A DNA stretch of 64,000 nt, taken from contig CM068825.1 in NCBI GenBank assembly GCA_028554795.2, positions 152,494,053 to 152,558,052 of the forward strand, read 5' to 3'. This DNA comes from Sinohyriopsis cumingii (Eukaryota > Mollusca > Bivalvia > Unionida > Unionidae). Of the stretch, positions 1,945 to 63,680 are shown piece by piece. Under the pieces are notes generated by a model. It saw only the letters and a program-made list of their open reading frames with translations. It did no database searches and was not told the DNA's origin. A program made the position numbers and the translations under genes. The number at the start of each line of letters is the position of its first letter. The first letter of the stretch is position 1.

Positions 1945-4900
1945 GTTAGTTTAGAAGTGGTTGAAGAGGAAAGGGTCTGGCGGTGTTTTTTCTCTCTTCT
2001 TTTTCTTTACACGATATGAATACAAAACAGCCAAATCAAACTCAAAGCTGACCCGAGGTTAGGAGTGTTCTGTTGTGATAACATTTGTTTAATTCCTTAT
2101 ATAATACCCCAGGAGTCTAACGTTTTATCAAGAAAGTACGATGAAATCTCTGACAACATGAAATCACCTTATCGGTAATATAAGTTAACACAAGAAGTGC
2201 AAGCGTGATCCCAACCCTTCGCCCACTTCAATTTTTCTCGCGCGTCTTTTATCGCTTCAAAATCTCAAGAAGACTTAAAAACTAGACATATCCATACAAA
2301 AGCCAGTAACGTACCAACGCATAACTCTCGGACGACCATCGCATGAATCTAACCCGGCTAATTAACCTTTATTTTCAACATTACGGTCACAAACCTTTTA
2401 TACACAACACCATCAGGCGGAAGTATACCATTCTACCAATTTCTACCCTCCAGTAAATATGTGGGGTGGGGGTGGGGGGAACGCCCAGTTTTTGTGTACA
2501 AATTTAAAGATCTACGTAAGTGTAGAACACGCTATATATCAGAATGCTCCATTTTCACTAAGAAAAACTCAGAAATGTGCACTAAAGATGCATATTTTGT
2601 CTAACAGAGAAGAAAATGAAGATAATGTGTGAATTTATCTATGTTTTATGGAAAACGCCCCGGAAACATTTGTATACTTCCGGTGGTAATAGGATTTCAG
2701 GTAGTGACGGAATTACATCACAATTAATACTTCCAGTTCAGTACCCACGAATGTAGTTCTAGTCTATTTTTAGAACATTTTTTTCCTCTCTCATTTTGGT
2801 GGTGATAGAAGAGTTTTATTTATGCATTTTTGGTAGGGATTTAAAGGTAACTGTTTATTCTTGATAATATGAGCTCAGGGTGTTGTTGTCTGCATGTATT
2901 TTGGCGACAGTGCACAGTGAGTAATAAGGCCTTGGTGATGATCCGGAAGTGAAATTCGTGTTCTGGTTACATGCTGTTATGTTGACAGTCAATAATCTAA
3001 AAAAAGAGCAGGTCAACCTTTGACAAGAACTTCACCGTGAAGTCATCTTTGAAGGTATTTTAGATTAACATATGATTTGCATTGATTGTCACACAGTGGA
3101 AAGGTCAGTACTGAGAAACAAATGTAGAGAACATATAGTAAAATTAATTGTGTACTATGTCCTGACGTACTGTCGGTAAGTCCCTCAAGTTCAGCGTATG
3201 GACATAGAACACATTTAATTTTACTATATGTTCTCTGCATTTGTTTCTCAATACTGACCTTTCCACTGTGTAACAATCAATCCAAATCATATGTTAATCT
3301 AAAATACCTTCAAAGATGACTTCACGGTGAAGTTCTTATCAAAGGTTGACATGCATTTTTTGAGAGGCTGGATTGTCAACAGAGCAGCATGTAAATAGAA
3401 CACATATTTCACTTATGGATCATCACCAAGGCCTTAGTGCTCACTGTGCACTGTCGCCAAAATACACACGTAAAACCACACCCTGAGCCTATATTCTCAA
3501 GAATGAATAATTACCTTTAAATCCCTACACAAAATGCATAAATATAACTATTCTATCACTAACAAAATGAGAGGAAAAAATATTCTAAAAATAGACTAGA
3601 AATACATTCGTTTGGGTACTGAACTGGAAGTACTACTTATGACCTGATTCCTGACAGGCCCAAGTTTTTATGACCAATTTTAGTCAAACTTTTATATCTT
3701 AACCCAACTGAACAATAAAATTGAATGCATTTTGTGTTAAACTTACATCATTTTCATGTTTTCTTACATCCAAGGGTAAATATACCTGGAGAAAGTATAT
3801 TTTATCCCTTTGACCTGTATTTCATTCTCGGACAGTTTAAAATGATTTAGTACAGAACTTGAGTAGGTTCTAGTATTAAGTTTTCATCTCTGCCCTCTCA
3901 CTAAATGCCCCATAACTATGTTTATAAACAATTACTAAAGGCTATACAAACAGATATGTGTTACTCAGGAAGTCACCCCATCAAAAACACATAAATTAAG
4001 TGCTTGGACCCCTAATAAATAGTGTGAATGGCCAGTACAAGTCAGAATTTTGTCTTCATGTATTTTAAATAAAGGTCTCATTTTGACTTAAAAATATATT
4101 TGCTCTGACAAAATTTGACAAATATCCAACGTTGTAGCTTGTATATGGTGTAGGAATATATACATGCTGATATCATATAACATCATTCCCCAAGAATATT
4201 ATATATGTGCATTTTAGGGGGAAAATTTTAATTTTTAATTCCATTCTTATCTTTTCAAAGTCAATTTACATAACACATTAAAATTTCACGTGTCTATAAT
4301 TAATAATAAGGATTTTATACCAATTTAAACTTTACTCAAATACTGCACTGATAGGACATAGAAAACAGTTAATTTTACTATATGTTCTCTATATTTGTTT
4401 CTCAATACTTACCTTTCCACAGTGTGACAATCAATCCAAATCATATGTTAATCTAAAATACTTTCAAAGATGACTTCACTGCGAAGTTCTTGTCCAAGGT
4501 TGACCTGCATGTTTTTGAGATGTTGGACTGTCAGCAGAGCAGCACGTAAACAGAACACAGATCTCACTTCCGCATCATCACCATGGCCTTAATACTCACT
4601 GTGCACTGTCGCCGAAATACACATGGAAAACCACACCCTGACCTCATATTCTCAAGAATTAACAATTACCTTTAATTCTATACCAAAATTGCATAAATAT
4701 AACTCTTCTATCACCAACAAAATGAGAGGAAAATATTCTAAAAATAGACTAGAACTACATTCATTTGGGTACTGAACTGGAAGTACTAATTGTGACCTGA
4801 TTCCGTATGTGGTGATGATGGCTGAATCGAGTGATGATTCAAGCAAATTTATGGCAAATTTGTTATGCTCATTTCCTTCATGTGAGAAAGAAGAACTCCT

Positions 4901-7900
4901 AGAAGATGGTTAAACAGTACCAATTTACGCCCGAACAAGAAGAGAACATGGACAAGGACCCTAAAGAGAACATAGGGCATAATGAGGCTGAGCAGCGTTT
5001 GGGCTATTCATTCTGGTAATTACTATATTCATTATGGTAATTACTATATTCATTCTGGTAATTACTATATTCATTATGGTAATTACTATATTCATTATGG
5101 TAATTACTATATTCATTCTGGCAGTTATTATTATTATTCTTTTGTTAATGTTATTTCAATTTCATAATGAAAAGAGAAAGGCACAAATCTGGGCAAAACC
5201 TCGATGTCTTCAAAGCAGATTTTCATGTGGGCATGGTTCATCAGTAACTAGTGGTGTTAAAAGGTAATCACTTAAGACTCAGACTGTGAGAGATGTAGAA
5301 ATAAATACTTTATTAACTTTATGAAGTTTGTTTTTTTAAACCGTGATGAAGTGTGATTGTTTACTACCCTCCACAGATAGGAAAACTGAAGAATTTGATT
5401 TTAAAAAAAGAAGAAAGTGTATTAATATACCTGGTGTATCCAGATGTTTAGGAAGCATATATTTTCTCTGTGTGTCTAGATGTATAATACTAGTGGCAGA
5501 GGAAGTATACAGTTTTATGGGGAAACAAATCTTGAGAATAATACATTTTTGTGGTACAAAATGTAGAACCAAAGTCTAACCATGCATCACATATACATAT
5601 ATGTCATACCTTAACATGCAACTAATCATACATTTTACCCACAAGTTTGCTATCAAACACAATAATGAATGTTGGAGTGTATTTACCTTGTATATTGGTG
5701 TACCTGTGGAAAATGCAGCAGTAAAGAAATGGTTCAGAAGTGTAGATGCTGTAAGTGACTATGATTTTGAATAAGACTGAGGAGGTCAAGGTGGATTGTA
5801 TCATTGATCATCCAAGATTTCAGACAGTTTGAATATGTCATGGAAGCAGCATGCTGTGCCTACATTCAGCAATAAGGAAATCCTGTCCGAGTACGTGAAA
5901 TATTCTTACAGTAGTTATGGTGTCACTATCAGGGTCAATTTTGAGACAAGTGATTGCTTTATATGCATGTGAATATTATGCTTAAAATTTCTTTTCATAA
6001 AATCCCTCCTTTATTGACAAAATGTATCAGTACTATCACTTTACTTGAGTGTGGAATTTTTACCCAAACCTTTCATTCTGATAATAGATCCTGCTAAAAT
6101 CATTCGTCCATTATCTTGGAAATTCTTATGAAAAATTCTTTAATCTTTTATAATTTCATTTGTTGAACAGGTTCTATACTATGACATTAAAAACACATTG
6201 CTGTCTGTTCATGTTCACCTTTAATTCATTTAGCTTCCTAACACTGGTTGTAGTAAAATCTAAATTTATGCTAAAAGCCATGACTCTGAAAACATGAAAT
6301 AAGTAACAGAAAACCGGGATACATGAAATAACATAACTTTATTAAAGTGTATAAATTTGCTGTACATTCTATTTTCAATCATAATAGATACATGGCTTAA
6401 TAGAGGTGGCAATAACTGTCTATCAACTGACTCTGGCTTCCTGACCACTTTCCCCAGTACTGCCATCAATTCTTATACATAGTCTGAAAAGAAATTGTTA
6501 CCCCAGTAATTCAAGAAACTGAAAAATGTCATCCACTGCCTATATTCAAAGGACAATTTACCAATGAGAATTAATGAAATTGGAAACAAGACTTAAATAG
6601 TTCATTTTAACATACAAAGAAATCATAACTTAATAAATGAATGAATAATAATAATAATTTTTGTCGCAATATATGATTTTGAATATGTGCTACAAAAAAT
6701 ACTGTGTTAGCTTTGTTTTGATTAAAATCTTTCAAGTTCGAGTTGCTTTGCTTTAGTTAGTTCCTTCCTTCTGTGTGTATGTACAGGGTCAGGAAGGAGG
6801 GGCCAGAAGTATTAATGATGGGGAGGGGGGAGCTGACTGTATTCCTGGTGATATGTTCACTGTCCAACTTTAATATAACTTTAAACATAGAACTGTTATA
6901 TTACTATATGTGCTTTGTATACACGTTTTATCAAATGGTATCATTCAGTGTGGTACAAACTGCAATATCTACATACCCTTGGCTACATGTCACACATCAA
7001 AATAGAGTGTGGCTCTCATATTCTTTCTGATCCATTTCTGTATCTGAACATGCCTGTCTGTAATAATAGTGTCCACCTTCACACTGTTGTTCTGCAGTTT
7101 TGTTATGGCTCTAGAAAGTCTCTCTTTCTCCATGTCATGACTACTCTTCACTTCATTTTCTGAAGAAAAGAGGGAAAAAAATGTGTTGAGCAAAATTAAC
7201 AATACTTCTATTTCTTGAAATGTGACATCATTTGTACATAGCTTAAATATGTTTACCAACATTTAAAAATGGACTTGTGCATAAGTAACATTGAAAAAGT
7301 AAGCTCATTTTCTTGCATGAGAATCATGTATGAATGCTGACAAGTACATGAAAATTTGCAATGCCTTGGCTCCTTCTCTTTATTTGCTGGACATCTGATT
7401 CACAAACCTGTGTAGTAGGTGAATTTTTAGAAGTGTATACTGATCATCATGGTTTTCACACAGATGAGGATTTCTCATGAATATGTGTATCAATTAAAAT
7501 GTATCACTGCTAAATAACAACAAGTTCACAAGTGTTTGGTCTACCGAGTCAAACACTTACCTAACCATACTGAGCTTAGTTAAAACAATGTTATATGTTT
7601 CATGTGCTTGTTTTTTCTTTCTTAAGTATCCTATAAGTCTGACACTGAACAGTACTGTATAATGGTTTATCTAGTCCCTGTAATAAGATTATGAAAAATG
7701 TGTTTCATGCCTTTGTAGTAGATATGATAGGCACACAAGAAGTCTTCTGCATGTCTGAACAATAGTTGACAAATGCACCAAACCCATTTTTCTTACTTTT
7801 ACAACAAATGGTTGATCATATTTGTCATATTACCAATACATTATAGTTTTTCCACAATAAAAATTTTTTACATAACTTAATTATTGACTCATATGCTGAT

Positions 7901-10900
7901 ACAATTTGTGAGGCCTTAGAAATTCATTTCAACTATGAAGCTATACAAGCCATGTAAACAGGGAATGAATGGACAGTTCACTGTGACATCAAAATGCATT
8001 ACCGGATACGTCACATCATATACTGTCTTCAGTTCTTTCTAGTGCATTATCTTCCAGGTGTTGGTTCTCAACATTCTCATTCAGTACCTAAAAAAAAGAT
8101 ATATTAAATTAGAGCAGCTTTAGAAGGTAAAATCTTTACACTGACAGCATTAAAGTATTTTAAAAATTCCATTTAACTATGGTTCTATACATATTGTGAA
8201 TAATAATACTACACTCTCCACATTAAATGGACATTATTATAAACACTCACAATCAATGAGTTGTGGGTTTGACTCTGACCTAGACTGTCATCCATTGACA
8301 CAGTTGTGTATATTCTAATTAATCGACAATCAGTGTCTCAACATGAAGGGTTAATTAGCCTTTACAGTTAAACACAATCAATACATCAAATATTTTGGCT
8401 ACAGCATAAAACTTGTTTTGTATTTATTTTTATTCTAATTATTATTATTATTATTATTATTGTTGTTGTTGAACAGGCATGAAATAAGCAATTATTATTA
8501 TTATTGTTGTTGTTGAACAGGCATGAAATAAGCATGGGCATGCAAAAAAAAATAATTTTTTTTTTTTTTTTTGGTGGGGGGGGAGGGAATACTATATATT
8601 GGGGGATTGGGCAAAACTAAAACCCATGAGTCACACACGTACTCATCATGGCAAAGCAGGATTCATTATGGGGGCTAGGGGTGGGGTTATTATGGTTTGT
8701 AAACACCCTCCCACTAAAATCGCCCTCTCCCATTGATCGTTCTTTTTGCTAGGTATATTTGTGGTGAGGAGTTTGACCTGACAACCAATAATATAGCAAG
8801 ATAAGGATGTATAAATATTTTACCCTCTTTAGCTCTCGCTTCTGTACAAGCTTCTCTTGGTCTGCATGTTAGTTCTGCCGTAACTTTGGTTCACGGACTC
8901 GGTTATCTGGCGAGAAAACACGCTTGGTACTGCATTTGGCAGGAGTCGTCTGATGGTTGTAATACTAAGTGACTCTTCAATTTTATATGCGGTATCGAAA
9001 TCGTCGTCTCTCAAATGGTCTATGCAGACTATCTCGCCTGTCACTGGTCGGATAACGCACGGTACGAGTTACTGAATGCAACTAATAACGAAAGTAGAAA
9101 TGCATTGTCCTACAATACGTCACTTCCGCTTTGTCTTAACGGAAATTGCCGAGCACCAAATCGGCTAGGAGCGTTCTTTCTCGTGCGATAAAAAAAATTA
9201 ATGTTTTGTGTTCATTATTTTCATTAATGATGAGCTATTTGACATAATATCTTTAAAAATAACATATAGAAGATTAAAGTTATTACATAAACGAAAGTTG
9301 TGTGAGCACACTAGTAGACCTATAATGCCGCAATCGAATATTAGTATTAAAAATAATTTTAAAAAAATCAAATACACCAGTGACGTCAAAAAGGTCCATA
9401 TTTTTGGATACCTATATTAAAACAAAGCATAAGAATATTATCCATTTGACCAGAGAAGTCAATGGCAGTTCATAGTAGAAGAAGTTATACACCCCAATCC
9501 CAAATTTATATCTGCAATTTTCATATCCATGTCATTTTTGACACCATGTGATGCTCACAGTGCAAACGCAAGCCCTTTTCTTAGATGACAATTCTGCAAA
9601 ACAGTGTGTACTTAACAGGCTGATGCAATTGAAAATAGTTGTTATCCAAGCCATTTTTGAATATTCTACTTATCCCAAACCCACGTGTTTACTGCTATGG
9701 GAGGTTAGCTCTTCTTCCTAGCCGACTATTGCTATTTCACTATCAACATACTGCATATAAAATATGGAAGGTGTACATACCTGACATCAGTTTCAAGAAC
9801 AACACAAGCCTGAAAAACCGTGGTTACAAATATATCCATATCTTTAAATAGTAAACAATAATAGCTGAAAAAGTCACACCATAGCCGTAAGTTAAAACAT
9901 TTGTTCGGGGCCAATTTACGAAACTGGACCCTGTCACCTAGGGTCTAATAATCATACCGAACACGGCGCGCAGTCTGTGTTGTCTTTAAATAGTAGGGAA
10001 ATTTAATAATGTGGAATCAATTGATTAGTTGAATTTGCTCAGATTAATGACTGCATCATGAAAATGTTATTTACAGTATTTTATTACTACTATTTTAAAA
10101 AGCTGAAGAAATTTTTTTTTCTCACTCTATACATACATATTGTTCTCGGTAGTCTTTCGGGCGGAGGAAGACAACTTGTGGGGTCTCATCGACGGTGGAC
10201 GCGCATGTGGCTCCGGAGTCCAAATTCCGATGCACACAAGCGGTTGCAGGTGAGCCATGGACGCCGGTGCTTGGGGGGTAGCTGAGACACAGCTCTGTGA
10301 CGTATCTCACGAGCTTCAGCAAGACGCTGGTGGCGATCAGCTTCGACGGTGGAACTGGCTTGTTGGTCAGGGCTCGCCAGTGACTTCTGTCCGAGGCAGC
10401 GAGCTCGAGCTGGTAGGGTTGAAGGTCTGCCCATTTGATGTGCGTCTTGAGATTGTCTTTGTACCTCTTACGAGAGCAGCCTTGGTTTCGGTTGTCCTGG
10501 GCTAGTTTGCCAAAGAAAAGCTGCTTTGGGATTCTGTTTTGATCCATGCGGATGACATGGCCAGTCCAACGAAGCCTGGCCTGGATTAGTTTGGCTTGGA
10601 TGCTTGTTGTGTTGGCACTATCAAGGAGTTCCTGGTTGGGGATTCGGTCCTGCCACTTGATCCGCATGATGGATCTAAGGGAGCGCTGGTGGAATTGTTC
10701 CCACTGTCTGATATGTCTTCGGTAGACAAATTATGTTTCACAGCCATACAAGAGAGACATGAGGACAACATCAATTTACACTTCATCTTTGTTGACAGGC
10801 GTATGTCCTTGTACTGCAAGACCTTGGTTCGGAGTGGTCCGAGTGCTTGACTGGCTTTTTGAATTCCCGAAGTCATCTCTTTGTTCAGGGAGCAATGGTG

Positions 10901-13067
10901 ATGCAGGGTTGTGAAGGGACAGTGTTTGGATTGCGCTGGAAGAGGACTTCTGTTTTTCCTAGGCTAATTGTGAGTAGATTGGATGCTTCAGAGAACATGT
11001 CCACGATTGCCTGTAAGTGACTCTTTTCATGGGCCATGAGGGTACAGTCATCTGCAAAGAGTGCTTCAGTGATGATTCTTTCTAGAGTCTTGGTTTTCAC
11101 GTCTAGGCAATGGAGACCAACCACTGAACCATTCAGGTGATATCTAATGTAGATACCAAGGTCAAGGTCACGGATGGCATGGAGAAGTACCTGTGTGAGG
11201 AAGAGGTTGAAGAGTACCGGAGCTAGTACACTGCCCTGTTTGACACCGTTAGATACAGGGAATTTCTTAGATTGTTCACCATTTGAGAGAATCTCTCCAT
11301 TCATGTCATCGTGAAAGAGCTGGATGAAGTTGGTAAACTTCTGAGGACAACCAAGCTTCTTGAGTACTACCCACAGTGCGTCTATGTTGACTCTATCGAA
11401 GGCTTTTGTCAGGTCCACAAAGACGGCATACAGATTCATGTTCTGCTCAAGATACGTCTCTTGGACTTGTCTCACAGCGAAGATCATGTCAACGGTGTTG
11501 TGGTCTGGGCGAAATCCACACTGAGACTCGGGGAGGTTATCTTCTGACACTGCCGCAATAAGACTGTTGAGAAAAATGCAAGCATGTATTTTGCCAGCTA
11601 TGGAGAGCAAGGAGATGCCTCTGTAGTTACAGTCCGTACGTGTGCCTTTATTCTTATAGAGGGTCACAATTGATACGTCGCGGAGGTCGTCTGGCATCTT
11701 CTCTTCCGTCCAGATGCTGATTAACATATCGTGGAATGCCTTCAGGTCTGTTAACTGAGAGCCTTGTACACTTCCGCTGGGATACCATCCTTTCCAGGTG
11801 ACCTGCGACAGTTCATTTGTTTAAAGGGCGTCCTCAACTCCTCTATCGTTGGCGGAACATGTAGTTGGTCGTGCGTTGGCTGTTGAGGTATTTGGTCAAG
11901 AACAGATTGGCTGACCGATGAGGGCAGGTTTAGGAGCTGACTGAAGTGTTCTTTCCATCGGTCCTTAATGCCAGCCTTGTCCTTTATTAGTGTACTGCTA
12001 TCTCCAGCAAGCAAAGGGACAGAGCCTGACTTTGAAAGGCCGAAGATTGACTTCATGGCTTTGTAGAACTCTTTGACGTTGTTAGTGTCGGTATAGTGTT
12101 GCACTTCATCAGCTTTCCTTGCGGATTTCTCTCTGAGCCTCAGCTTGATAAGATTTGAAGTGGTCTATTTTGGGGATGGAGTTTAGGTCATTCTGCCAGT
12201 CCATGAATGCTTTGTTCTTTCTGGCAAGCAGATCTTCAATGGCACCGTTGATCTCTTGGAACCAGTCTTGATGGGTTCGCATGTTGGGGACCAGAGTCGT
12301 CATAGCTATTTCTCTTATCATGTTCCTGAGTTTGTTCCATTTCTCGGAGGCATTTCTACGTATATGTCCGTTGGTAGACAGCTTGTCCTCTAGGCTCTTC
12401 TGGAAATTGAGCTGGGCGGAAGGCTGTTGTAGTTTGACAATGTCGAAGTCTGTGCGCATAAGCTTAGGACGCCTTGTTGATGTGGGGCAATGCGTAACTT
12501 TAGGGCAGTTCGGACAAGTCTGTGGTCTGTCCAACATTCCGCTCCTTGCATCGCATTGGTGATGAGGACATCCTGGGCATCGCGTTGGCGGACTATTACA
12601 TAGTCGATTAAGTGCCATTGTCGAGATCTGGGGTGCCTCCAGGTGTTCTTGTGTTCGACATTCTGAACATTGAGTTTGTATTGAGGAGGTCAAATTCTAC
12701 GCATTTGCTGAGTAGGAGCAGGCGGTTGATCATCTTGCCGACACTGTGCTTGCCAGGCACACCTTTCGATCTACCATAATCGCAGCCAACACGGGCGTTA
12801 AAGTCTCCCAGTAGTAATATCTTGTCGTCAGCTTCAACTGAGTGCTGTACAGAATTGAAGTCAGCGTAGAACTGCTCGATGGTTTCGGCTGGGCTTGAGA
12901 GGGTAGGGGCGTAGACGCTGATGATTGTTGCGTGGCGTTTGTGGCTGAGAGGTAGTTGCAATTTCATTAGCCTCTCATTAATACCAACAGGCAGGTCCGG
13001 AAGCTGCTCGTGAAGACTTGATTTGACAGCCAGGCAGACTCCGTGGATCCTGTCTTCGTCTACATAC

Positions 13068-13098
<31 letters not shown>

Positions 13099-16000
13099 CA
13101 TACATACATACATACATACATACATACATACAGTTGCTGATAGCGTTCAGACTGTTCTCGCATTGTATACACACAATCCTGATAATTTTTGTATTTTGTG
13201 TTACCTGCCTCATCTGTCTGTCTGTCTGTCTCTCTCTCCCACACACACACACACACACAGACACACAGTACCATCATCATCAATGGTTAATCAGTTGTAT
13301 AAAGTATCAGCTTTTCTCCTTTCCTACTGTTTTTCTCTCTCTCTGTCATCATCATCATCCTCATCATCATAATAGAAAGCACATATCTCGTACCGTATCT
13401 TCTCGTGGGTCGGTGGTTCTTCCCGGGGTTTTCCCGGGTTCTTCCTCCACCATTAATACTGCCCGTCATGCATAGCCTATCGTGTGCTGAAAAATGGCGT
13501 TAAACCCCACAACAACAACAACATACCGTATCATATTTTCTTTGTCACTATTATTTTCTGTTATGAATTTTTTTTAACAAACAACAGATGGTCTTACCAG
13601 GTGGCAACCTCTAGAAAGTCGAACAAGCACATTTTTAAATCTACTGGATCCAGCATCCGTCTAGACTTTAATATTTCAAGTGTGATGAAGTCCTCAACCG
13701 TTATTTCTACTATCCGAACTTTAACTATTACATTTTCGTTCTGAAAATTTACATAAAATTTTCGTATTATACAATCAGAAATAAAAAGCAAGTGAAACAT
13801 TTTATCGTGTGAAACTACTTTCATGATGTTATTCATTCAGTCCGTTGTAGAATTGACTATTTCCACCCGATGGAGTCGTGTAGAAAGGTTGTGTGACCGT
13901 AATGGTGAAAATAAAGGTTAATTCGCCGGATTGGATTCATGCGATGGTCGTCCGAGAGTTATGCGTTGGTACGTTACTGTCTTTTCAATGGATATGTGTA
14001 GTTTTACAGTCTTCTTGCGATTTTGAAGCGATAAAAGACGCGTAAGAAAAGTTGAATCGAGCGGAGGGTTGGGATCAGGCATGCACTTCTTGTGCTAACT
14101 TATAGTACCGATAAGGTGATTTCGTGTTGTCAGAGATTTCATCGTACTTTATTGAAAAAACGTCAGACTCCTGTGATAATGCTCGCGTACGTACACCACA
14201 GTCATTGGATAATTGTACAAGAAACCAAAAAATGATATAGCTATTGATTCATGATTTTTATCCTGTAGATAAAGTGTAATGATTTTACAAGTCATTTCTA
14301 ATATATACTGTAAAAATAGATACAAGTAGCTATGGCAGCTACCGTAGGATATCCCATTACCATGGGGACGGATCCAATGATGACACGCTTGCAGATAGTT
14401 GCCAAGCAGCATAATTACAAAGTTTCATGAATTGCCGTTCAGTGGTACAGGATGCGATATAGTAACAAAAAGAAAAAGAACAGGCAGACAGAGAAAAGAA
14501 GGTTATTAAAATATCCCCGACATTTAAAAAAAATGTAATCTCCTTTTCTTTTGCCTTTTTTTGTTGGTGTTTTCTTTTGGGTTACCTTTACCCCTTTTTT
14601 TTTTAACTTTGAGGATGACTAGCCTTCAGTGATAGACAGTTCAAGTACCTTGCACGTATCTTTAAAAAAAACATTCAAACATTCCAAATGCTCCCGTAAC
14701 AAGTATTTTTAAGATAAAATAATATTTTTTTGCAACCAAATCTAATTTTTAAAAGATGGTAAGGCTTGTAAAGCTAAATTTAACTGTTCTGACATAATAT
14801 AAAATGTGCGACTTAATAAGGACTTCATATTTTGTTTATAGGCATAGCTTCAACTTCTGGAGAGCTTTGGAAGGAACACCGAAAATTTACTCTTACAACA
14901 CTAAGGAATTTTGGATTTGGAAAAACTAGCCTAGAAGGAAAGATCCACACGGAAGTTTCTATACTTTTATCTGAGATCGCGAAACAAAAAGAGAAGCCAT
15001 TCCGTATTCAGCATCTTGTACAAACTAGCGTATCCAATGTCATCAATGCTATGATATTTGGAGGACATTTTAGTCATGACGATCCAAGGTTTGGAAAAAT
15101 AATGACAATACTAGACGAACACTTCGAAAACAATGGACCCAATAATGTAGTTGCTTTCTTTCCTTTCCTGCGGTACCTGCCTGGGGACCTGTTTCATGTT
15201 AAAAAGACGCTGAGAAATATCAAATATGTGGAAGGATTTATAGGCGACCTTATTGACAAGCATATGGAGAACTTCGACGAGAGCAAAATGGAAGACTTTA
15301 TTGATGCTTTCCTACTGGAAATGAAGAATAATCGAGATAAGAAAGATTCTACATTTACAAGTGCGTGAAACTAAACCTATTAGGTCCACACTTTGAAACT
15401 ATACATATTGTTCAATTTTATTAAAAAAGGTCGTGAGGTTATCCGCGTCATACGTACAAGCTATCAACTGAAACTGATTTATTTAATATCACCTTTCTTT
15501 TCTTAAAGAAGTTTTCAGTTTTATGATCGACTTGCATTTCGGATGATATCTTAAAGAGAGTAAAATTGATTGGTACAGTGCGTTTGAAAATCTTAATGAT
15601 CTATCGCTCTGTTATACTGATTTCTATTTTCTTTCATTTTGTCCTCCTGCTAATAATTTAAGGACCATTGCATTGTAATACATTTTTACAACTTTTTTTA
15701 TCTTGTAGAAAAGCAGCTGACAAAAACAGTACTGGATCTGTTTTCAGCTGGCACAGAAACAACAACGACTACGATTATTTGGGCACTTCTGTACCTTGCT
15801 GCCAAACGAGATATCCAAGCGCGCGTTTTTCGTGAGATAAACGAATTCGTTGGAACAGACCGCCTGCCGTCCTTGCAAGACAAACGGAGATTGGTGTACA
15901 CCGAGGCCTTTATTATGGAAATTCTTAGAGCTTGTAACATTGCTACGCTGAGCATTCCCCATACATGTTCTGTGGACACAAAACTCCGGGGCTTTGACAT

Positions 16001-24869: not shown

Positions 24870-25388
24870 ATGAATCACTCTACACAGATGAAAAAAGAGA
24901 AGGAACAAACATCATTGACCTCTTTCACTACCATACCGTCACAGCAAAGTGCGTCCAAGAAGGGAAAAGATTCAGTAGACCTAAAGGAGTATTTTAGCAT
25001 CCAAATGATTCAGACAGCAACCTCGAGAAAATTTAGAACGACAACTTACACCTACACGGTGAAATTTAGAGACTTCGCGTCTGACATTTCAGCCGAGGAA
25101 GTAGCAGGTTTCATTACGGACCTACTTGACTCACTGTTAGAGGAATTCAGATGTCATTGCCAAGTCAAAGATCGAGGTCGTGTGAGCCGATCTATGTATC
25201 ACGACACTTTGAACTCACCTGTATGTCTCGGATTTAGCACACCTGCAGAAATAACTTCTTCCAAACTTTTGAGGGCTATTGAAGACGTGCTGTCGATGAG
25301 AGGAAAATTTGACATCACCGAAGGAAAAGTAACCATTCATATGGCATACGTTGTACTTCCACGGGAAGAAGACGATGACTGCACTTGA
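24870..25388 (+). CDS. 172-aa element protein next to polymerase B
   Basis: The start MNHSTQMKKEKEQ is chosen for its TATA box 43 bp upstream; the frame itself is open from 24804. A Ser/Lys-rich leader is followed by TYTYTVKFRDFASDISAEEV and LLDSLLEEF, then LNSPVCLGFSTPAEITSS, LLRAIEDVLSM and VTIHMAYVVLPREEDDD. I recall a similar module, YTVxxxDF...LxxPIxLPF...VNVVHVxMP, at the N-terminus of polymerase-B proteins of invertebrate mobile elements. If right, this is the head of a second element copy placed after the tail of the first. The last 27 codons are copied again at 26907-26989 by the 1.58-kb duplication. The function is unknown. Confidence 0.5.
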   Translation: MNHSTQMKKEKEQTSLTSFTTIPSQQSASKKGKDSVDLKEYFSIQMIQTATSRKFRTTTYTYTVKFRDFASDISAEEVAGFITDLLDSLLEEFRCHCQVKDRGRVSRSMYHDTLNSPVCLGFSTPAEITSSKLLRAIEDVLSMRGKFDITEGKVTIHMAYVVLPREEDDDCT

Positions 25389-25934
25389 TCTGTTTACTGA
25401 TAAGTGTACCTAGCACAATGGATATAACAGCCTATTTACGAATGAAACGGATTAAGTGATGGGAAACATCTACGCTGGGACACAAGTGCTAGCTGACCAG
25501 AATTTTAACAACGTGTGAGACGAATAGAGAGAGAAACATGAACTTTGTCCTATTTGATTCCATGTTACTTGTTCTGTGTTAGCTTTTTCTTATAAATGAA
25601 CATTAAATATAGACAGGTTTACTAGAGCCAAGAACTAAATAACTAGCAAATAGGTTTGTTTGATGTAGAAATGCTTATGTATTAAATGGATAGTGCTTAG
25701 ACCAAAGCACAGGCCAGAGAGCCCATGTATATACTTGTACAAATGTTGTGAACCCATACAATAGACTTTTCTTTTTTGAGTCTCTATTCTTTCTGGGAGG
25801 TTTTCTTTAGAACATTTCTGTCGTCTTTTCTGTGTGTTTAAATGTGTAATTATATGTTTGTCCCTATCTACCCTTTGTCCTTACCAATACATTAAAATCC
25901 CTATAAAATGTTTTGACCCTATAAACCTCATGAC

Positions 25935-26060
25935 GTCACCCAATGTTCAATTCCCATTGACATCCAGGTGACATTCCCATGTTAAATTCCCATTGACGCC
26001 AAAAGTGCAAACCCCTATTTTAACGTTAAAGTCCCCTTGAGGCTATGGTGGCCCCATATA
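25935..26060 (-). repeat. Degenerate units of the 45-bp satellite
   Basis: Blocks CATGTTAAATTCCCATTGAC and GTTAAAGTCCCCTTGAGGCT are the reverse complement of the 45-bp unit arrayed at 61481-61850 (CTCAAGGGGAATTTAACATG). About three units are present, copied again at 27538-27660. Confidence 0.65.
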
Positions 26061-26498
26061 CTATTCACGTAAAATGAGGAGTCAGCAGGTCTTGAAGCGT
26101 TTGCATTTCAGGAATGCCACGAACTTCTCTTTACAAATACCTGATTGCTGTCAAATGAGTTCAGCTTCTCGCTTTAGTGACTGACTCCGATCTTTTCATC
26201 CTATCCCATTATAGTTTCCATTCCACTACATCGGTTTTTTTTTCCTCGGCTTACGTTCTGCCAAGGACAATGGCAGTGGCTAAACACATCTGATTTTGTA
26301 AGTTATTAATCTGGATGATACTTTGTTTGGTACTGAGAAATGCATCCACCAATAACACTTTGCGTAATCGTCTGCCTCTTGGAGTTGAAACATGCGTCAT
26401 GTGATGAGTAGCTTTTCAACCAATTATTTTAAATTCGTTATTGGGTTGAGGTAAAGAATTACGATACATTTCTCTCATATATAATTCAGTCTGCCAAA

Positions 26499-26633
26499 AT
26501 GTCTTTCAAAACAAAGTGTTTCGTTTTCACTCTGTTCTTTGTTTCTGTTTCAATCCCTGTCTTCTATTCACTGTTTTCCACTTCTGTCCTTCGTCTCGCT
26601 TTCTTTTGTTTCTATTATTGCTGTTATTGAACA
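26499..26633 (+). CDS. 44-aa hydrophobic peptide ORF, doubtful
   Basis: A short basic tail (MSFKTK) is followed by about 20 hydrophobic residues (CFVFTLFFVSVSIPVFYSLF), like a type II signal anchor. It ends at TGA after CCY. An identical copy stands in unit 2 near 28101. It could be the first exon of an anchored protein or simply T-rich noncoding DNA. There is no conservation evidence beyond the recent duplication. Confidence 0.15.
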
Positions 26634-26906
26634 GACGTTTCTCCATCATCTTTCTGACGTTGCAAAAATCACTCCAACCCTCCTTTGTTTCTTTAGGAAT
26701 CATCAGCCGGTGGTAATGATAGACAAAGAGGTGAAGATAGTACTGTCGCAGGCAAACATTTTTATGGATGCGACAGGAAACTAATGTGATACGAAGTTTG
26801 AGAAGAAGACCAGTGAAGCGAAGCTAATAGGTCCCCTATCACGGGTTATCAAAAACATATTGCCCTTTTCAGGGACAGGCAGATCTCAATTTGATCTCAG
26901 ACAGGC

Positions 26907-28489
26907 AATTTGACATCACCGAAGGAAAAGTAACCATTCATATGGCATACGTTGTACTTCCACGGGAAGAAGACGATGACTGCACTTGATCTGTTTACTG
27001 ATAAGTGTACCTAGCACAATCGATATAACAGCCGATTTACGAATGAAACGGATTAAGTGATGGGAAACATCTACGCTGGGACACAAGTGCTAGTTGACCA
27101 GAATTTTAACAACGTGTGAGACGAATAGAGAGAGAAACATGAACTTTGTCCTATTTGATTCCATGTTACTTGTTTTGTGTTAGCTTTTTCTTATAAATGA
27201 ACATTAAATATAAACAGGTTTACTAGAGCCAAGAACTAAATAACTAGTAAATAGGTTTGTTTGATATTGAAATGCTTATGTATTAAATGGATAGTGCTTA
27301 GACCAAAGCACAGCCAGAGAGCCCATGTATATACTTGAACAAATGTTGTGAACCCATACAATAGACTTTTCTTTTTTGAGTCTCTATTCTTTCTGGGAGG
27401 TTTTCTTTAGAACATTTCTGTTGTCTTTTCTGTGTGTTTAAATGTGTAATTATATGTTTGTCCCTATCTACCCTTTGTCCTTACAAATACATTAAAATCC
27501 CTATAAAATGTTTTGACCCTATAAACCTCATGACGTCACCCAATGTTCAATTCCCATTGACATCCAGGTGACTTTCCCATGTTAAATTCCCATTGACGCC
27601 AAAAGTGCAAACCCCTATTTTAACGTTAAAGTCCCCTTGAGGCTATGGTGGCCCCATATACTATTCACGTAAAATGAGGAGTCAGCAGGTCTTGAAGCGT
27701 TTGCATTTCAGGAATGCCACGAACTTCTCTTTACAAATACCTGTTTGCTGTCAAATGAGTTCAGCTTCTCGCTTTAGTGACTGACTCCGATCTTTTCATC
27801 CTATCCCATTATAGTTTCCATTCCACTATATCGGTTTTTTTTCCCCCTCGGCTTACGTTCTGCCAAGGACAATGGCAGTGGCTAAACACATCTGATTTTG
27901 TAAGTTATTAATCTGGATGATACTTTGTTTGGTACTGAGAAATGCATCCACCAATAACACTTTGCGTAATCGTCTGCCTCTTGGAGTTGAAACATGCGTC
28001 ATGTGATGAGTAGCTTTTCAACCAATTATTTTAAATTCGTTATTGGGTTGAGGTAAAGAATTACAATACATTTCTCTCATATATAATTCAGTCTACCAAA
28101 ATGTCTTTCAAAACAAAGTGTTTCGTTTTCACTCTGTTCTTTGTTTCTGTTTCAATCCCTGTCTTCTATTCACTGTTTTCCACTTCTGTCCTTCGTCTCG
28201 CTTTCTTTTGTTTCTATTATTGCTGTTATTGAACAGACGTTTCTCCATCATCTTTCTGACGTTGCAAAAATCACTCCAACCCTCCTTTGTTTCTTTAGGA
28301 ATCATCAGCCGGTGGTAATGATAGACAAAGAGGTGAAGATAGTACTGTCGCAGGCAAACATTTTTATGGATGCGACAGGAAACTAATGTGATACGAAGTT
28401 TGAGAAGAAGACCAGTGAAGCGAAGCTAATAGGTCCCCTATTACGGGTTATCAAAAACATATTGCCCTTTTCAGGGACAGGCAGATCTC
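26907..28489 (+). repeat. 1.58-kb tandem duplication, unit 2
   Basis: Second unit, separated from the first by 18 bp (26889-26906, AATTTGATCTCAGACAGG). That filler repeats pieces of both ends, as in template switching at a repaired break. Confidence 0.95.
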
Positions 28490-34560: not shown

Positions 34561-36219
34561 GTTAGTTTAGAAGTGGTTGAAGAGGAAAGGGTCTGGCGGT
34601 GTTGTTTTTTCTTTTTCTTTGCACGATATGAACACATAAGACAGCCAAACCAAAATCAAAGCTGACCCGAGGTTAGTATTGTTCTACTGTGATAACCTTT
34701 CTTCAATTCCTTATATAATACTCACATACGTATTCCACTTTCATTGGATAATTGTACAAGAAACCAAAAAATGATCTAGCTATGGAATCATGATTTTTAT
34801 TCTGTACATAAAGTGTAATGATTTTACACGAAAGTTCTAATATATATACTTTTTAAATATATACAAATAGCTGTGGCAGCTACAGTAGTATATCCGTATT
34901 ACCCTGGGGACGGATCAAACGATGACACCGCTTGCAGATAGTTGCCAAACAGCATAATTACAAAGTTTCATGAATTGCCATTTAGTGGTACAGGTAGTCT
35001 GGTTCCCTGCTTCTTATGCTCCCTGCGTTGAACTCCGCTATACGAAGTCAGGCGAACGCGGACGCCATATTGTCACGTGATCAAAACAAATGGCCTCACA
35101 TGGAGAGATCTAGTTAATCTAACCGTGGCACATTTATTCCTTTAATATTCTTTTCCTTAAGGAGACAATGTGAACTTTACTAATATTTTTTATTTGAATT
35201 ATATCAGTCGTTATCTTGTGTTAAAGCTTTACCACCAATTCGTCATACAATTATTTTTACAACTATTTTTTTTCTAGTAGACGGAGTTGAAGGAAAAGGG
35301 TACACACAAACGATATTTCGATAATAATGCACATTTTACACTGCGTCATCTCATAGATTCCTTCTCCAATTGATTCCTTGATAAATTTTACGTCCAAATT
35401 GATTTTTGAGGTGATGTACGACAGCCTAAATATAGCCAAAGATAAAGCGATAATATCACCCCTCTTTTACGAGGGGGTGAGGGTAACGATTGTTTTGCAA
35501 ATATTGCACACTTCACACCAGGTCATCTAAAATATTCTAGTTGCAATAAATTCCTTGATTAATTTTACATCGATATAAATATCTCGTTGTACATTACACC
35601 TCAGACTTAGCCAAATATTATGATTCAAACAGCAACCCTAGTCCACGAGGGGGTGAATTTGATTGGTCCAATATTGTACATTCCGACTGCATCATGTAAC
35701 AGAACTCATTTGCTATCAATCCCTTGATATGTTTCACGTCGGAATTGACGTAAGGCGACACATGACATCCTTCATTTGCCAAAGATATAAGACCGAAATT
35801 CCATATCTTTTATACGCAAGAGGGGCGGGTGTGACGATATTTTGTGAAATAAGTGTTTCTGAGATTACATCGTCTGAAATTTAGATCTGTAATTGATTCC
35901 TTGGTCAAGTGTACATTGATACAGATGTATCGTTCACGACAATACAGATTCTGACAAACAGTAAGACCAAAACACCAATCATCTTCATACCAAAGTCTTA
36001 TATAATTGGTACTAAGAACTGCCTCACTAGGCGCTCAGCATTAAGATGTTAGTGTTTAGGACTGGTCGGCCTGGTGTCAGGATAATGTGACTGGGTAGGA
36101 CATCATGCTACATGTCTGCGGCTTGATGCCCCAAAACTAGACATCACTATAAACTGTCACACTGCAGATATTGTAGCAATATGACTGAACAATTGTTAAC
36201 GCTACGTTAAAAATCTAAA

Positions 36220-61471: not shown

Positions 61472-61480
61472 GTAGTGAAG

Positions 61481-61850
61481 TGGGTCACCCTAGCCTCAAT
61501 GGGAATTATCATTACAGAGACCCCTGGGTCACTCTAGCCTCAATGGAAATTTAACATGGGGAAAAATCGTGGGTCACTCTAGCCTCAAGGGGAATTTAAC
61601 ATGGAGAAAAATCGTGGGTCACTCTAGCCTCAAGGGGAATTTAACATGGAGAAAAATCGTGGGCCACTCTAGCCTCAAGGGGAATTTAACATGGGAATAA
61701 ATCGTGGGCCACTCTAGCCTCAAGGGGAATTTAACATGGGAATAAATCGTGGGCCACTCTAGCGTCAAGGGGAATTGAATATGGAGAAAAATCGTGGGAC
61801 TGTCTAGCGTCAAGGGAAATTGAACATGGTGGGATTGTCTAGGGACAATG
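61481..61850 (+). repeat. 45-bp satellite array, about eight units
   Basis: The unit starts GGG(T/C)CACTCTAGCCTCAAGG and ends in GAATTTAACATGG(A/G)GAAAAATCGT. Unit starts fall at 61481, 61526, 61571, 61616, 61661, 61706, 61751 and 61796. A 15-residue in-frame repeat on the minus strand is an artefact. Degenerate inverted units occur in the 1.58-kb duplication. Confidence 0.93.
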
Positions 61851-62119
61851 ATGGTAGAGGGTCAAACACAACAGAGACAGAGACATACATACACTAGTAC
61901 AAAGCGTGAGATTTATATATAAAGCATTACCAAGACCTGAAATCTTGCTGGGGTGTTCAAAAATTTGCATAATTGTAATAATGCTATAAATAGCTATAAT
62001 CAAGGAAATGCTCAACGACAAAATGGATGTGACTAAAAGTAACGCTAAAATGACGAAATTGTCCCAGAATTTAAAGGAAAATAAACATATCCCCGAAAAT
62101 TAAGTTACAACGGTTTAGA

Positions 62120-62640
62120 ATAAAATGGATAAAATTAGTAACTACTTACAAAATCAACTTGTGTGACGATCGTCGATAAACACCCATGTATCTATTTATA
62201 GCTATAATCAGCTAAAATTCCTATGAAATTCCACTATCTATTTATAGCTCCAACTTGTGGGTTATTCCTTTGGAAAATCCTACTATCTTTTTATAGCCTC
62301 AGCTTGAGTGACGTTCCTGTTTATGAACTCTAGTATATATGTATAGCTACAACCTGTGGAAATCCCCAAGTCCATATTTATAGTCTCGAAATTTCCAGCG
62401 TCAGTGACGTCACTGTACTGAACACTAGGGGATAAGTGTCAACAGTGTTGCAAGTGGCTGACCTGAATACGCGCTACTGTAGGTAGGTAGGTAGGTAGGT
62501 TAGGGGATAAGTGTCAACAGTGTTGCAAGTGGCTGACCTGAATACGCGCTACTGTAGGTAGGTAGGTAGGTAGAATGTATTTGATAGGGATAAAGGGAGT
62601 TTTATACGGACAAACAGAGACCAATAGACACACACACACA
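62120..62640 (+). repeat. 725-bp period duplication, unit 1
   Basis: It matches 62845-63272 almost base for base (AAAATGGATAAAATTAGTAA through GGACAAACAGAGACCAATA). It has an extra 76-bp internal tandem copy (62427-62502 repeated from 62503; ACTGTAGGTAGGTAGG) that unit 2 lacks. CTATTTATAG occurs at 62192 and 62238, and the palindrome TGACGTCA at 62405. Confidence 0.93.
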
Positions 62641-62674
62641 CACACACACACAACGTATGCGCGCAGACATACTC

Positions 62675-62709
<35 letters not shown>

Positions 62710-62844
62710 CAACATACGCTAGCAGACATACTCACACACACACACAAAAACACACAACGTACGCGCGCAGACATACACACACACACAAACACACAACGTA
62801 CGCGCGCAGACATACTCACACACACACAAACACACACACACACT
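62628..62844 (+). repeat. CA-rich array with ACGTACGCGCGCAGACATAC
   Basis: Blocks AACGTACGCGCGCAGACATA alternate with (CA)n about every 50 bp, four times. Long purine-pyrimidine alternation could form Z-DNA. Confidence 0.9.
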
Positions 62845-63272
62845 ATAAAATGGATAAAATTAGTAACTACTTACAAAATTAACTTGTGTGACGATCGTCG
62901 ATAAACACCCATGTATCTATTTATAGTTATAATCAGCTAAAATTCATATGAAATCTCACTATCTATTTATACTACAACTTGTGGGTTATTCCTTTGGAAA
63001 ATCCCACTATCTTTTTATAGCCTCAGCTTGAGTGACGTTCCTGTTTATGAACTCTAGTATATATGTATAGCTACAACCTGTGGAAATCCCCAAGTCCATA
63101 TTTATAGTCTCGAAATTTCCAGCGTCAGTGACGTCACTGTACTGAACACTAGGGGATAAGTGTCCACAGTGTTGCAAGTGGCTGACCTGAATACACGCTA
63201 CTGCAGGTAGGTAGGTAGAGTGTATCTGATAGGGATAAAGTGAGTTTTATAGGGACAAACAGAGACCAATAC
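62845..63272 (+). repeat. 725-bp period duplication, unit 2
   Basis: Second unit. CTATTTATAG at 62917 and TGACGTCA at 63129 are kept; the second CTATTTATAG is changed (CTATTTATAC). Confidence 0.93.
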
Positions 63273-63314
63273 ACACACCCACACACACACACAACGTACG
63301 CGCGCAGACATACG

Positions 63315-63345
<31 letters not shown>

Positions 63346-63532
63346 ACACAGAGGGAAGAGGAAAAAACAAACCCCAAATAAACTATCCACACAAACGTAC
63401 GCGAACGCATAGAAACCCCAAATATACTATCCACACAACGTCGCTAACGCATACAAACCCCAAATATGCTATCCACACTCGGGAGGAAGAAGAAAAAAAA
63501 CAACCAAATATACGATCTACACAACGTACGCG

Positions 63533-63578
<46 letters not shown>

Positions 63579-63680
63579 GAAGAGGAAAAAACAAACCCCA
63601 AATAAACTATCCACACAAACGTACGCGAACGCATACAAACCCCAAATATACTATCAACACAGAGTGAAGAAGAAAAAGTT
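63270..63680 (+). repeat. CA-rich array with ACCCCAAATA units
   Basis: (CA)n blocks alternate with AAACCCCAAATA(A/T)ACTATC and CACAACGTACGCGAACGCAT; whole sub-blocks (for example the one with AGGGAAGAGGAAAAAACAAA) occur twice, near 63350 and 63577. Confidence 0.9.

What the first reader, a model, noticed from the sequence alone, without database searches (positions are those of the whole stretch)
2101..14182. A 12-kb long-TIR DNA element of unassigned superfamily in a P450 intron, with its own empty site in the window
The 330-bp inverted repeats at 2108-2437 and 13846-14175 are bounded by ATAATAC/ATAATGC. The paralogous intron of CYP-B has a single uninterrupted copy of this site. This defines both ends to the base. 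The termini (CMCAGGAGTCT) with a 7-bp duplication do not match a superfamily I can name. Inside are THAP-type exons, so it could be a large autonomous element now hosting a LINE and a foldback.
Basis: partly seen in the sequence, partly recalled or inferred. Interest (0 to 1): 0.8.

Follow-up and report, generated by a model that had tools for sequence, protein, structure and literature searches.

The report
Nested transposons inside a small transposon
The 12-kb stretch is a small, common, gene-less jumping DNA element of about 1.5 kb in a P450 gene's intron, swollen by six later insertions, one of which carries the transposase remains that made it look like one giant autonomous element.

Summary
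In detail: 332-nt inverted repeats (88%), a 7-bp duplication (ATAATAC/ATAATGC), and an empty site with one ATAATAC in the paralogous P450 intron. The reading as one large THAP-coding autonomous element does not. Copies elsewhere in the 2.9-Gb host genome show that only ~1.5 kb is the element's own. The rest is nested: an abundant ~0.65-kb repeat at 2461/9939; in it, at a TTAA, a decayed Kolobok-like element (2508-9321) owning the THAP and HVAKG fragments; in that, two LTR-like insertions (the "foldback"); plus a LINE and a SINE-like repeat. The outer family is large (1,319 termini at <=1 mismatch, control 2). In 10 exact pairs the duplication is 7 bp in 8, 8 bp in 1, ambiguous in 1, with a target resembling GTANTAC of Drosophila Galileo (P superfamily). 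Best reading: a non-autonomous, Galileo-like P-superfamily family, probably in a mollusc. P-type transposase domains exist in this genome (17 places), but none was tied to these repeats, so membership is inferred. Ordinary in kind; the Galileo-type target preference outside Drosophila is the part worth following.

The parts
2101..2107 (.). left target-site duplication ATAATAC of the outer element
2108..2437 (+). left long TIR of the outer element
2438..2461 (+). outer element, subterminal sequence up to the nested insertion
   Evidence: short copies continue directly at 9939
2462..2503 (+). left piece of the nested ~0.65-kb abundant repeat (left boundary approximate)
2504..2507 (.). TTAA, target of the Kolobok-like element
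2508..9321 (-). decayed Kolobok-like element (gene on the minus strand), itself holding the LTR-like insertions
2710..3162 (-). solo LTR-like insertion, TSD TGACG (first arm of the 'foldback')
3201..4804 (+). LTR-like insertion: ~450-bp direct repeats (3201-3651, 4355-4804) around ~700 bp, TSD GTATG
6975..7163 (-). HVAKG exon of the Kolobok-like gene, with an internal stop
8832..9068 (-). THAP-like exon (C-terminal half of the domain, below cut-off)
9322..9325 (.). ATAA, right copy of the TTAA target
9326..9938 (+). right piece of the ~0.65-kb abundant repeat, ending ...CACC
9939..10139 (+). outer element resumes
10140..13060 (-). LINE (reverse transcriptase; endonuclease remains below cut-off) inserted at the outer element's own (TACA)n
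   Evidence: RVT_1 2.7e-29; junctions
13061..13390 (+). outer element: (TACA)n and internal sequence
13400..13523 (.). SINE-like short dispersed repeat (class not tested), 9-bp TSD TACCGTATC (13391-13399, 13524-13532)
13533..13845 (+). outer element, internal sequence
13846..14175 (-). right long TIR of the outer element
14176..14182 (.). right target-site duplication ATAATGC
34715..34721 (.). empty site (single ATAATAC) in the paralogous P450 intron

Best explanation
The 12-kb unit is a ~1.5-kb non-autonomous cut-and-paste element with ~330-bp inverted repeats sitting in a P450 intron with a 7-bp duplication (shown). That it arrived after the P450 duplication is inferred from the empty paralogous site. 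Six later insertions enlarged it, each seen absent in other copies: an abundant ~0.65-kb repeat; a Kolobok-like element in that repeat at TTAA; two LTR-like insertions in the Kolobok-like element; a LINE in the outer element's (TACA)n; and a SINE-like repeat. The THAP/HVAKG fragments are the Kolobok-like element's decayed gene. The outer family was most likely mobilised by a P-superfamily, Galileo-like transposase supplied in trans (inferred from TSD length, target preference and long TIRs). Short copies with little between the repeats would arise by internal deletion during gap repair, as discussed for P and Galileo (inferred). The nesting is the 0.9 claim; the Galileo-like superfamily alone I put at about 0.6.
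For: Nesting: 12 of 20 fetched places join 2461 to 9939; copies read lack the LINE (7 copies shown, of which L021, L027 and L009 were read across the whole (TACA)n) and the SINE-like repeat (5 copies shown). The 0.65-kb repeat occurs without the Kolobok in all 3 copies read: L017, L066, L067. All 17 other Kolobok left ends read start alike, 16 of 17 directly after TTAA (L063 has GTAA); L041's right end is followed by TTAA. L036 has both LTR-like sites empty. Outer family: 1,319 termini at <=1 mismatch against 2 for the control. In the 10 exact inverted pairs among the first 100 listed termini, the TSD is 7 bp in 8 (5 exact, 3 with one mismatch), 8 bp in 1, ambiguous in (TACA)n in 1. Target: 13 TSDs match GTANTAC at 3.35 of 6 positions against 1.69 +/- 0.29 for permuted letters, 0 of 20,000. 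Of 570 exact termini, RTANTAY precedes 10 (7 insertions), a permuted motif 0. Galileo: 7-8 bp TSD, GTANTAC, long TIRs. P-type RNase H domain PF21787: 17 places above cut-off in this genome.
Against: No transposase is tied to the outer TIRs: none of 159 listed TIR entries (some the same terminus) lies within 20 kb of the 17 PF21787 places, but the family has over 1,319 termini. Of the 10 fetched loci (of 20) where both termini were found, only 5 show a TSD at <=2 mismatches without shifting the ends. The TIRs (330 bp) are shorter than Galileo's 0.5-1.2 kb. Only 10 of 570 termini carry the strict target motif. L076 and L086 share a flank, so two of the 10 pairs are not independent. The 0.65-kb repeat's left edge in the window lacks a clean duplication. 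L013 carries another SINE-like copy a few bases from the window's site, read as a separate insertion.
Confidence: 0.9

Rival explanations
1. One 12-kb autonomous long-TIR element with its own THAP/HVAKG transposase; the short copies are its internal deletion derivatives.
For: The gene lies between the TIRs, and P-superfamily transposases also carry THAP domains.
Against: 12 places share the same 2461/9939 junction and the 0.65-kb repeat there also occurs alone. The gene-bearing unit has its own termini, after TTAA in 16 of 17 other copies with unlike flanks except one duplicated pair. Only the window locus joins the gene to this TIR within 10 kb among the entries compared.
Confidence: 0.03
2. 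The outer family belongs to the Mutator (MULE/Foldback) superfamily, which also has long-TIR and foldback elements.
For: Long TIRs and short foldback-like copies; Tetris, a Drosophila foldback element with 8-10 bp TSDs, was assigned there by its authors (passages).
Against: TSD is 7 bp in 8 of 10 pairs and the target resembles Galileo's GTANTAC.
Confidence: 0.15
3. The outer family belongs to another or an undescribed superfamily with a 7-bp TSD.
For: No autonomous partner found; the superfamily rests on TSD length and target only.
Against: The match to the published Galileo target, a consensus taken from the literature and not from these data.
Confidence: 0.2

Closest known systems
Galileo (P superfamily, Drosophila)
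   Same: 7-bp, sometimes 8-bp TSD; target consensus like GTANTAC; long TIRs; most copies non-autonomous (PMC4168063: abstract, background, passages; PMC2775673: passages; PMC3688188: passages).
   Different: TIRs here ~330 bp, not 0.5-1.2 kb; no linked transposase found; TIR sequences were not compared with Galileo's; the host looks like a mollusc, not a fly (not tested).
Kolobok superfamily (Xenopus XKol and others), for the inner element only
   Same: TTAA target, AG...CT ends, short TIR, THAP-like exon, length of several kb (PMC6004289: passages).
   Different: All copies seen are decayed; THAP and catalytic matches are below Pfam cut-offs.
KolobokP (bivalve-rich Kolobok lineage)
   Same: A Kolobok lineage rich in bivalves (PMC9587614: passages).
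   Different: KolobokP has long terminal direct repeats; the inner element here has inverted ends, and the 450-bp direct repeats inside it have 5-bp, not TTAA, duplications.

Membership tests
P superfamily / Galileo (outer element) | 7-8 bp target-site duplication | tested here: met
   8 of 10 exact pairs 7 bp, 1 of 10 8 bp, 1 ambiguous; 3 more pairs, picked by motif, all 7 bp (2 exact, 1 with one mismatch); 5 of 10 fetched loci with both termini
P superfamily / Galileo (outer element) | target preference GTANTAC | tested here: met
   modest: 10 of 570 strict matches
P superfamily / Galileo (outer element) | long TIRs (0.5-1.2 kb in Galileo) | tested here: inconclusive
   330 bp: long, but below Galileo's published range
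P superfamily / Galileo (outer element) | P-type transposase between the TIRs | tested here: inconclusive
   17 PF21787 places, none within 20 kb of the 159 TIR entries compared; most termini could not be compared
P superfamily / Galileo (outer element) | terminal ~40 bp similar to Galileo ends | not tested
   the published ends were not at hand as sequence
Mutator/MULE (outer element) | 8-11 bp TSD (range recalled; Tetris 8-10 bp) | tested here: not met
   7 bp in 8 of 10 pairs
Kolobok (inner element 2508-9321) | TTAA target-site duplication | tested here: met
   TTAA/ATAA in the window, uninterrupted TTTAA in L017, L066, L067; TTAA before 16 of 17 other left ends
Kolobok (inner element 2508-9321) | 5'-RR ... 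YY-3' ends with TIRs | tested here: met
   AGATCTACGTAAGTG ... AGTAGACCT
Kolobok (inner element 2508-9321) | THAP domain | tested here: inconclusive
   half-domain, Pfam E 0.07, below cut-off, E 0.99 in a longer frame; no THAP hit in L045 or L033
Kolobok (inner element 2508-9321) | DDE catalytic domain and H2CH motif | tested here: inconclusive
   exon with TDRH...FDV.HVAKG; PF21787 and Mutator matches below cut-off, with unrelated families scoring about as well; H2CH not sought

The most novel reading that the evidence does not exclude
A Galileo-type lineage of the P superfamily, with long TIRs, 7-bp GTANTAC-like targets and foldback-like short copies, lives outside Drosophila in an apparently molluscan genome in more than a thousand termini, driven in trans by one of the P-type transposases present there.
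Probability: 0.55. Interest if true: 0.45.

Novelty: new member of a known kind. Interest (0 to 1): 0.3.

Why it matters
It shows how an apparent giant autonomous transposon can be a stack of nested insertions, resolved level by level with empty sites. If the P-superfamily link holds, long TIRs with Galileo's target preference are not a Drosophila peculiarity. A curated mollusc library counts no P element among the DNA transposons listed in the passage I saw, though P was among its search profiles (PMC10294476, passages). Galileo generates chromosomal inversions in flies (PMC2775673, passages), so an abundant relative elsewhere would let that be tested in another phylum.

Tried and rejected
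Rejected: the THAP/HVAKG gene as the outer element's transposase. Rejected: the inner unit as an internal part lost by deletion, because the repeat at the junction occurs alone. Rejected: the 'foldback' as one palindromic element; it is two LTR-like insertions with separate 5-bp duplications, TGACG and GTATG. Considered: KolobokP for those direct repeats; not followed, as their duplications are not TTAA.

Led nowhere: Pfam on long concatenated frames (0 families); viral contigs for the HVAKG exon (22 stretches matched a pattern, no relative); PF12017 in the genome (1 place); consensus-TIR search for a partner copy (40 candidates scored of 1,931; none of the entries near a P-type domain); THAP in other copies; paper search for CANRG (one unrelated paper); paper searches for P elements or Galileo with mollusc, bivalve or octopus: no listed title or abstract start names a Galileo-like element in a mollusc. 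That is a search of one open-licence library, seen as listings.

Rows dropped: one search used 13 TSDs and left out two 8-bp ones (L026, L070), the microsatellite one (L074) and two that need shifted ends (L016, L023). L076 and L086 share one flank. Of 20 fetched places L009-L028, 10 show both termini and 5 of these a TSD at <=2 mismatches (L010, L015, L017, L018, L026); L009, L012, L016, L023 and L027 do not without shifting the ends. L020 and L021 are near-identical copies 40 kb apart, and L007 is the same place as L013. In one search only part of the 145 HVAKG places was typed in; one search used all 145.
Full report
The observation. The window holds an inverted repeat of 332 nt at 88% identity without gaps. 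Its ends are flanked by ATAATAC and ATAATGC, and the paralogous P450 intron carries one ATAATAC with both flanks collinear. P450 exons lie on either side and in the paralogue. A single insertion with a 7-bp duplication is therefore well supported; that it came after the P450 duplication is the simplest reading of the empty site.

What is inside. The host genome (2.9 Gb) holds many copies of the repeat: 43 matches with 40 of 1,681 candidates scored, and 1,319 termini at <=1 mismatch against 2 for the reversed control. Twenty places were fetched. In 12 of the 20 the sequence runs from window 2461 directly to 9939, with small differences at the join; the other 8 lack one or both stretches. Further in, copies continue to about 13110-13393 and 13528-14175. 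The outer element's own sequence is about 1.5 kb, and the other ~10.5 kb arrived later.

The nested layers. (a) At 2461/9939 sits a ~0.65-kb repeat (2462-2503 plus 9326-9938), very abundant (40 of 3,607 candidates scored, 88-91% identity besides the window itself), seen without the Kolobok in L017, L066 and L067. (b) At a TTAA in that repeat sits a unit from 2508 to 9321 with ends AGATCTACGTAAG and AGTAGACCT; L017 shows the same place uninterrupted. Seventeen other left ends were read: all start alike, 16 of 17 follow TTAA, and the flanks differ apart from one duplicated pair, L055/L057. (c) The HVAKG exon (145 matches, 150 of 518 candidates scored) and the THAP-like exon (40 of 137 candidates scored) travel with these ends: 20 of 40 left ends have an HVAKG match within 10 kb, and 27 of 40 THAP places have an HVAKG or left-end match within 10 kb, using part of the HVAKG list. 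(d) Inside the unit, two LTR-like insertions with TSDs TGACG and GTATG make up the apparent foldback; L036 has both sites empty. (e) The LINE sits in the outer element's (TACA)n, and the SINE-like repeat has a 9-bp duplication; L013 has its own SINE-like copy a few bases away.

Link between gene and TIR. Of 140 listed TIR entries, only the window locus is within 10 kb of any HVAKG place; within 20 kb there is one more, a weak match 15.5 kb away. None of the 20 fetched places matches 4810-9321.

Superfamily of the inner unit. TTAA target, RR/YY ends and a THAP-like exon are among the features given for Kolobok (PMC6004289 and PMC9587614, passages). The protein evidence is weak: THAP half-domain E 0.07, and RNase-H-type matches below cut-off, with unrelated families scoring about as well. 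Filing it as Kolobok rests mainly on ends and target.

Superfamily of the outer element. TSDs are 7 bp in 8 of 10 exact pairs, 8 bp in one and ambiguous in one. Among older fetched copies, 5 of 10 loci with both termini show a TSD. Thirteen TSDs resemble GTANTAC more than permuted letters do (3.35 of 6 against 1.69 +/- 0.29; 0 of 20,000). Genome-wide, RTANTAY precedes 10 of 570 exact termini (7 insertions, one of them also among the 13), and a permuted motif of the same letters precedes 0 of 570; base composition alone would give about 1.3 (my estimate at 62% A+T). Galileo makes 7-8 bp duplications with that consensus and has long TIRs. P-type RNase H domains are present at 17 places, none within 20 kb of the 159 TIR entries compared. 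I call it Galileo-like, non-autonomous, membership inferred.

Age and host. Of 27 TIR rows, 26 lie 88-94% and one 84% from their majority consensus; these are among the best-matching copies, so the family is not young. P450 type (recalled), genome size, and the statement that Kolobok is almost confined to bivalves among molluscs (PMC10294476, passage) suggest a bivalve; this is inference, not a test.

Verdict. The finding is real and its ends are right. The 12-kb autonomous reading is wrong: it is a nested stack on a small non-autonomous element.

Noticed in passing
L042:1-1559, L047:1670-2935, L041:about 1192-1569 (window counterpart 7036-7094): In 3 of the 20 HVAKG loci read, the HVAKG exon has been amplified into an 18-codon (54-bp) tandem array, 29 and 24 copies in L042 and L047: a minisatellite growing inside a transposase exon.
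   Followed up: partly
window 8889-9065 (THAP-like exon): Genomic copies that match only this stretch do so at about 86-92%, while full-length matches of the exon lie at 78-88%; this may reflect past coding constraint or just an indel nearby.
   Followed up: no
window 2462-2503 and 9326-9938; L066, L067: A very abundant ~0.65-kb repeat ending in CACC followed by TA, of unassigned class; L066 and L067 share further sequence to its left.
   Followed up: partly
G000, 17 places: P-superfamily RNase H domains (PF21787) above cut-off in this genome, several in open frames of 300-600 aa, some with stops.
   Followed up: no
window 25306-28489 and 61480-63661: A 1.58-kb direct duplication at 98.7% identity, and a cluster of short direct duplications at 83-100%.
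   Followed up: no
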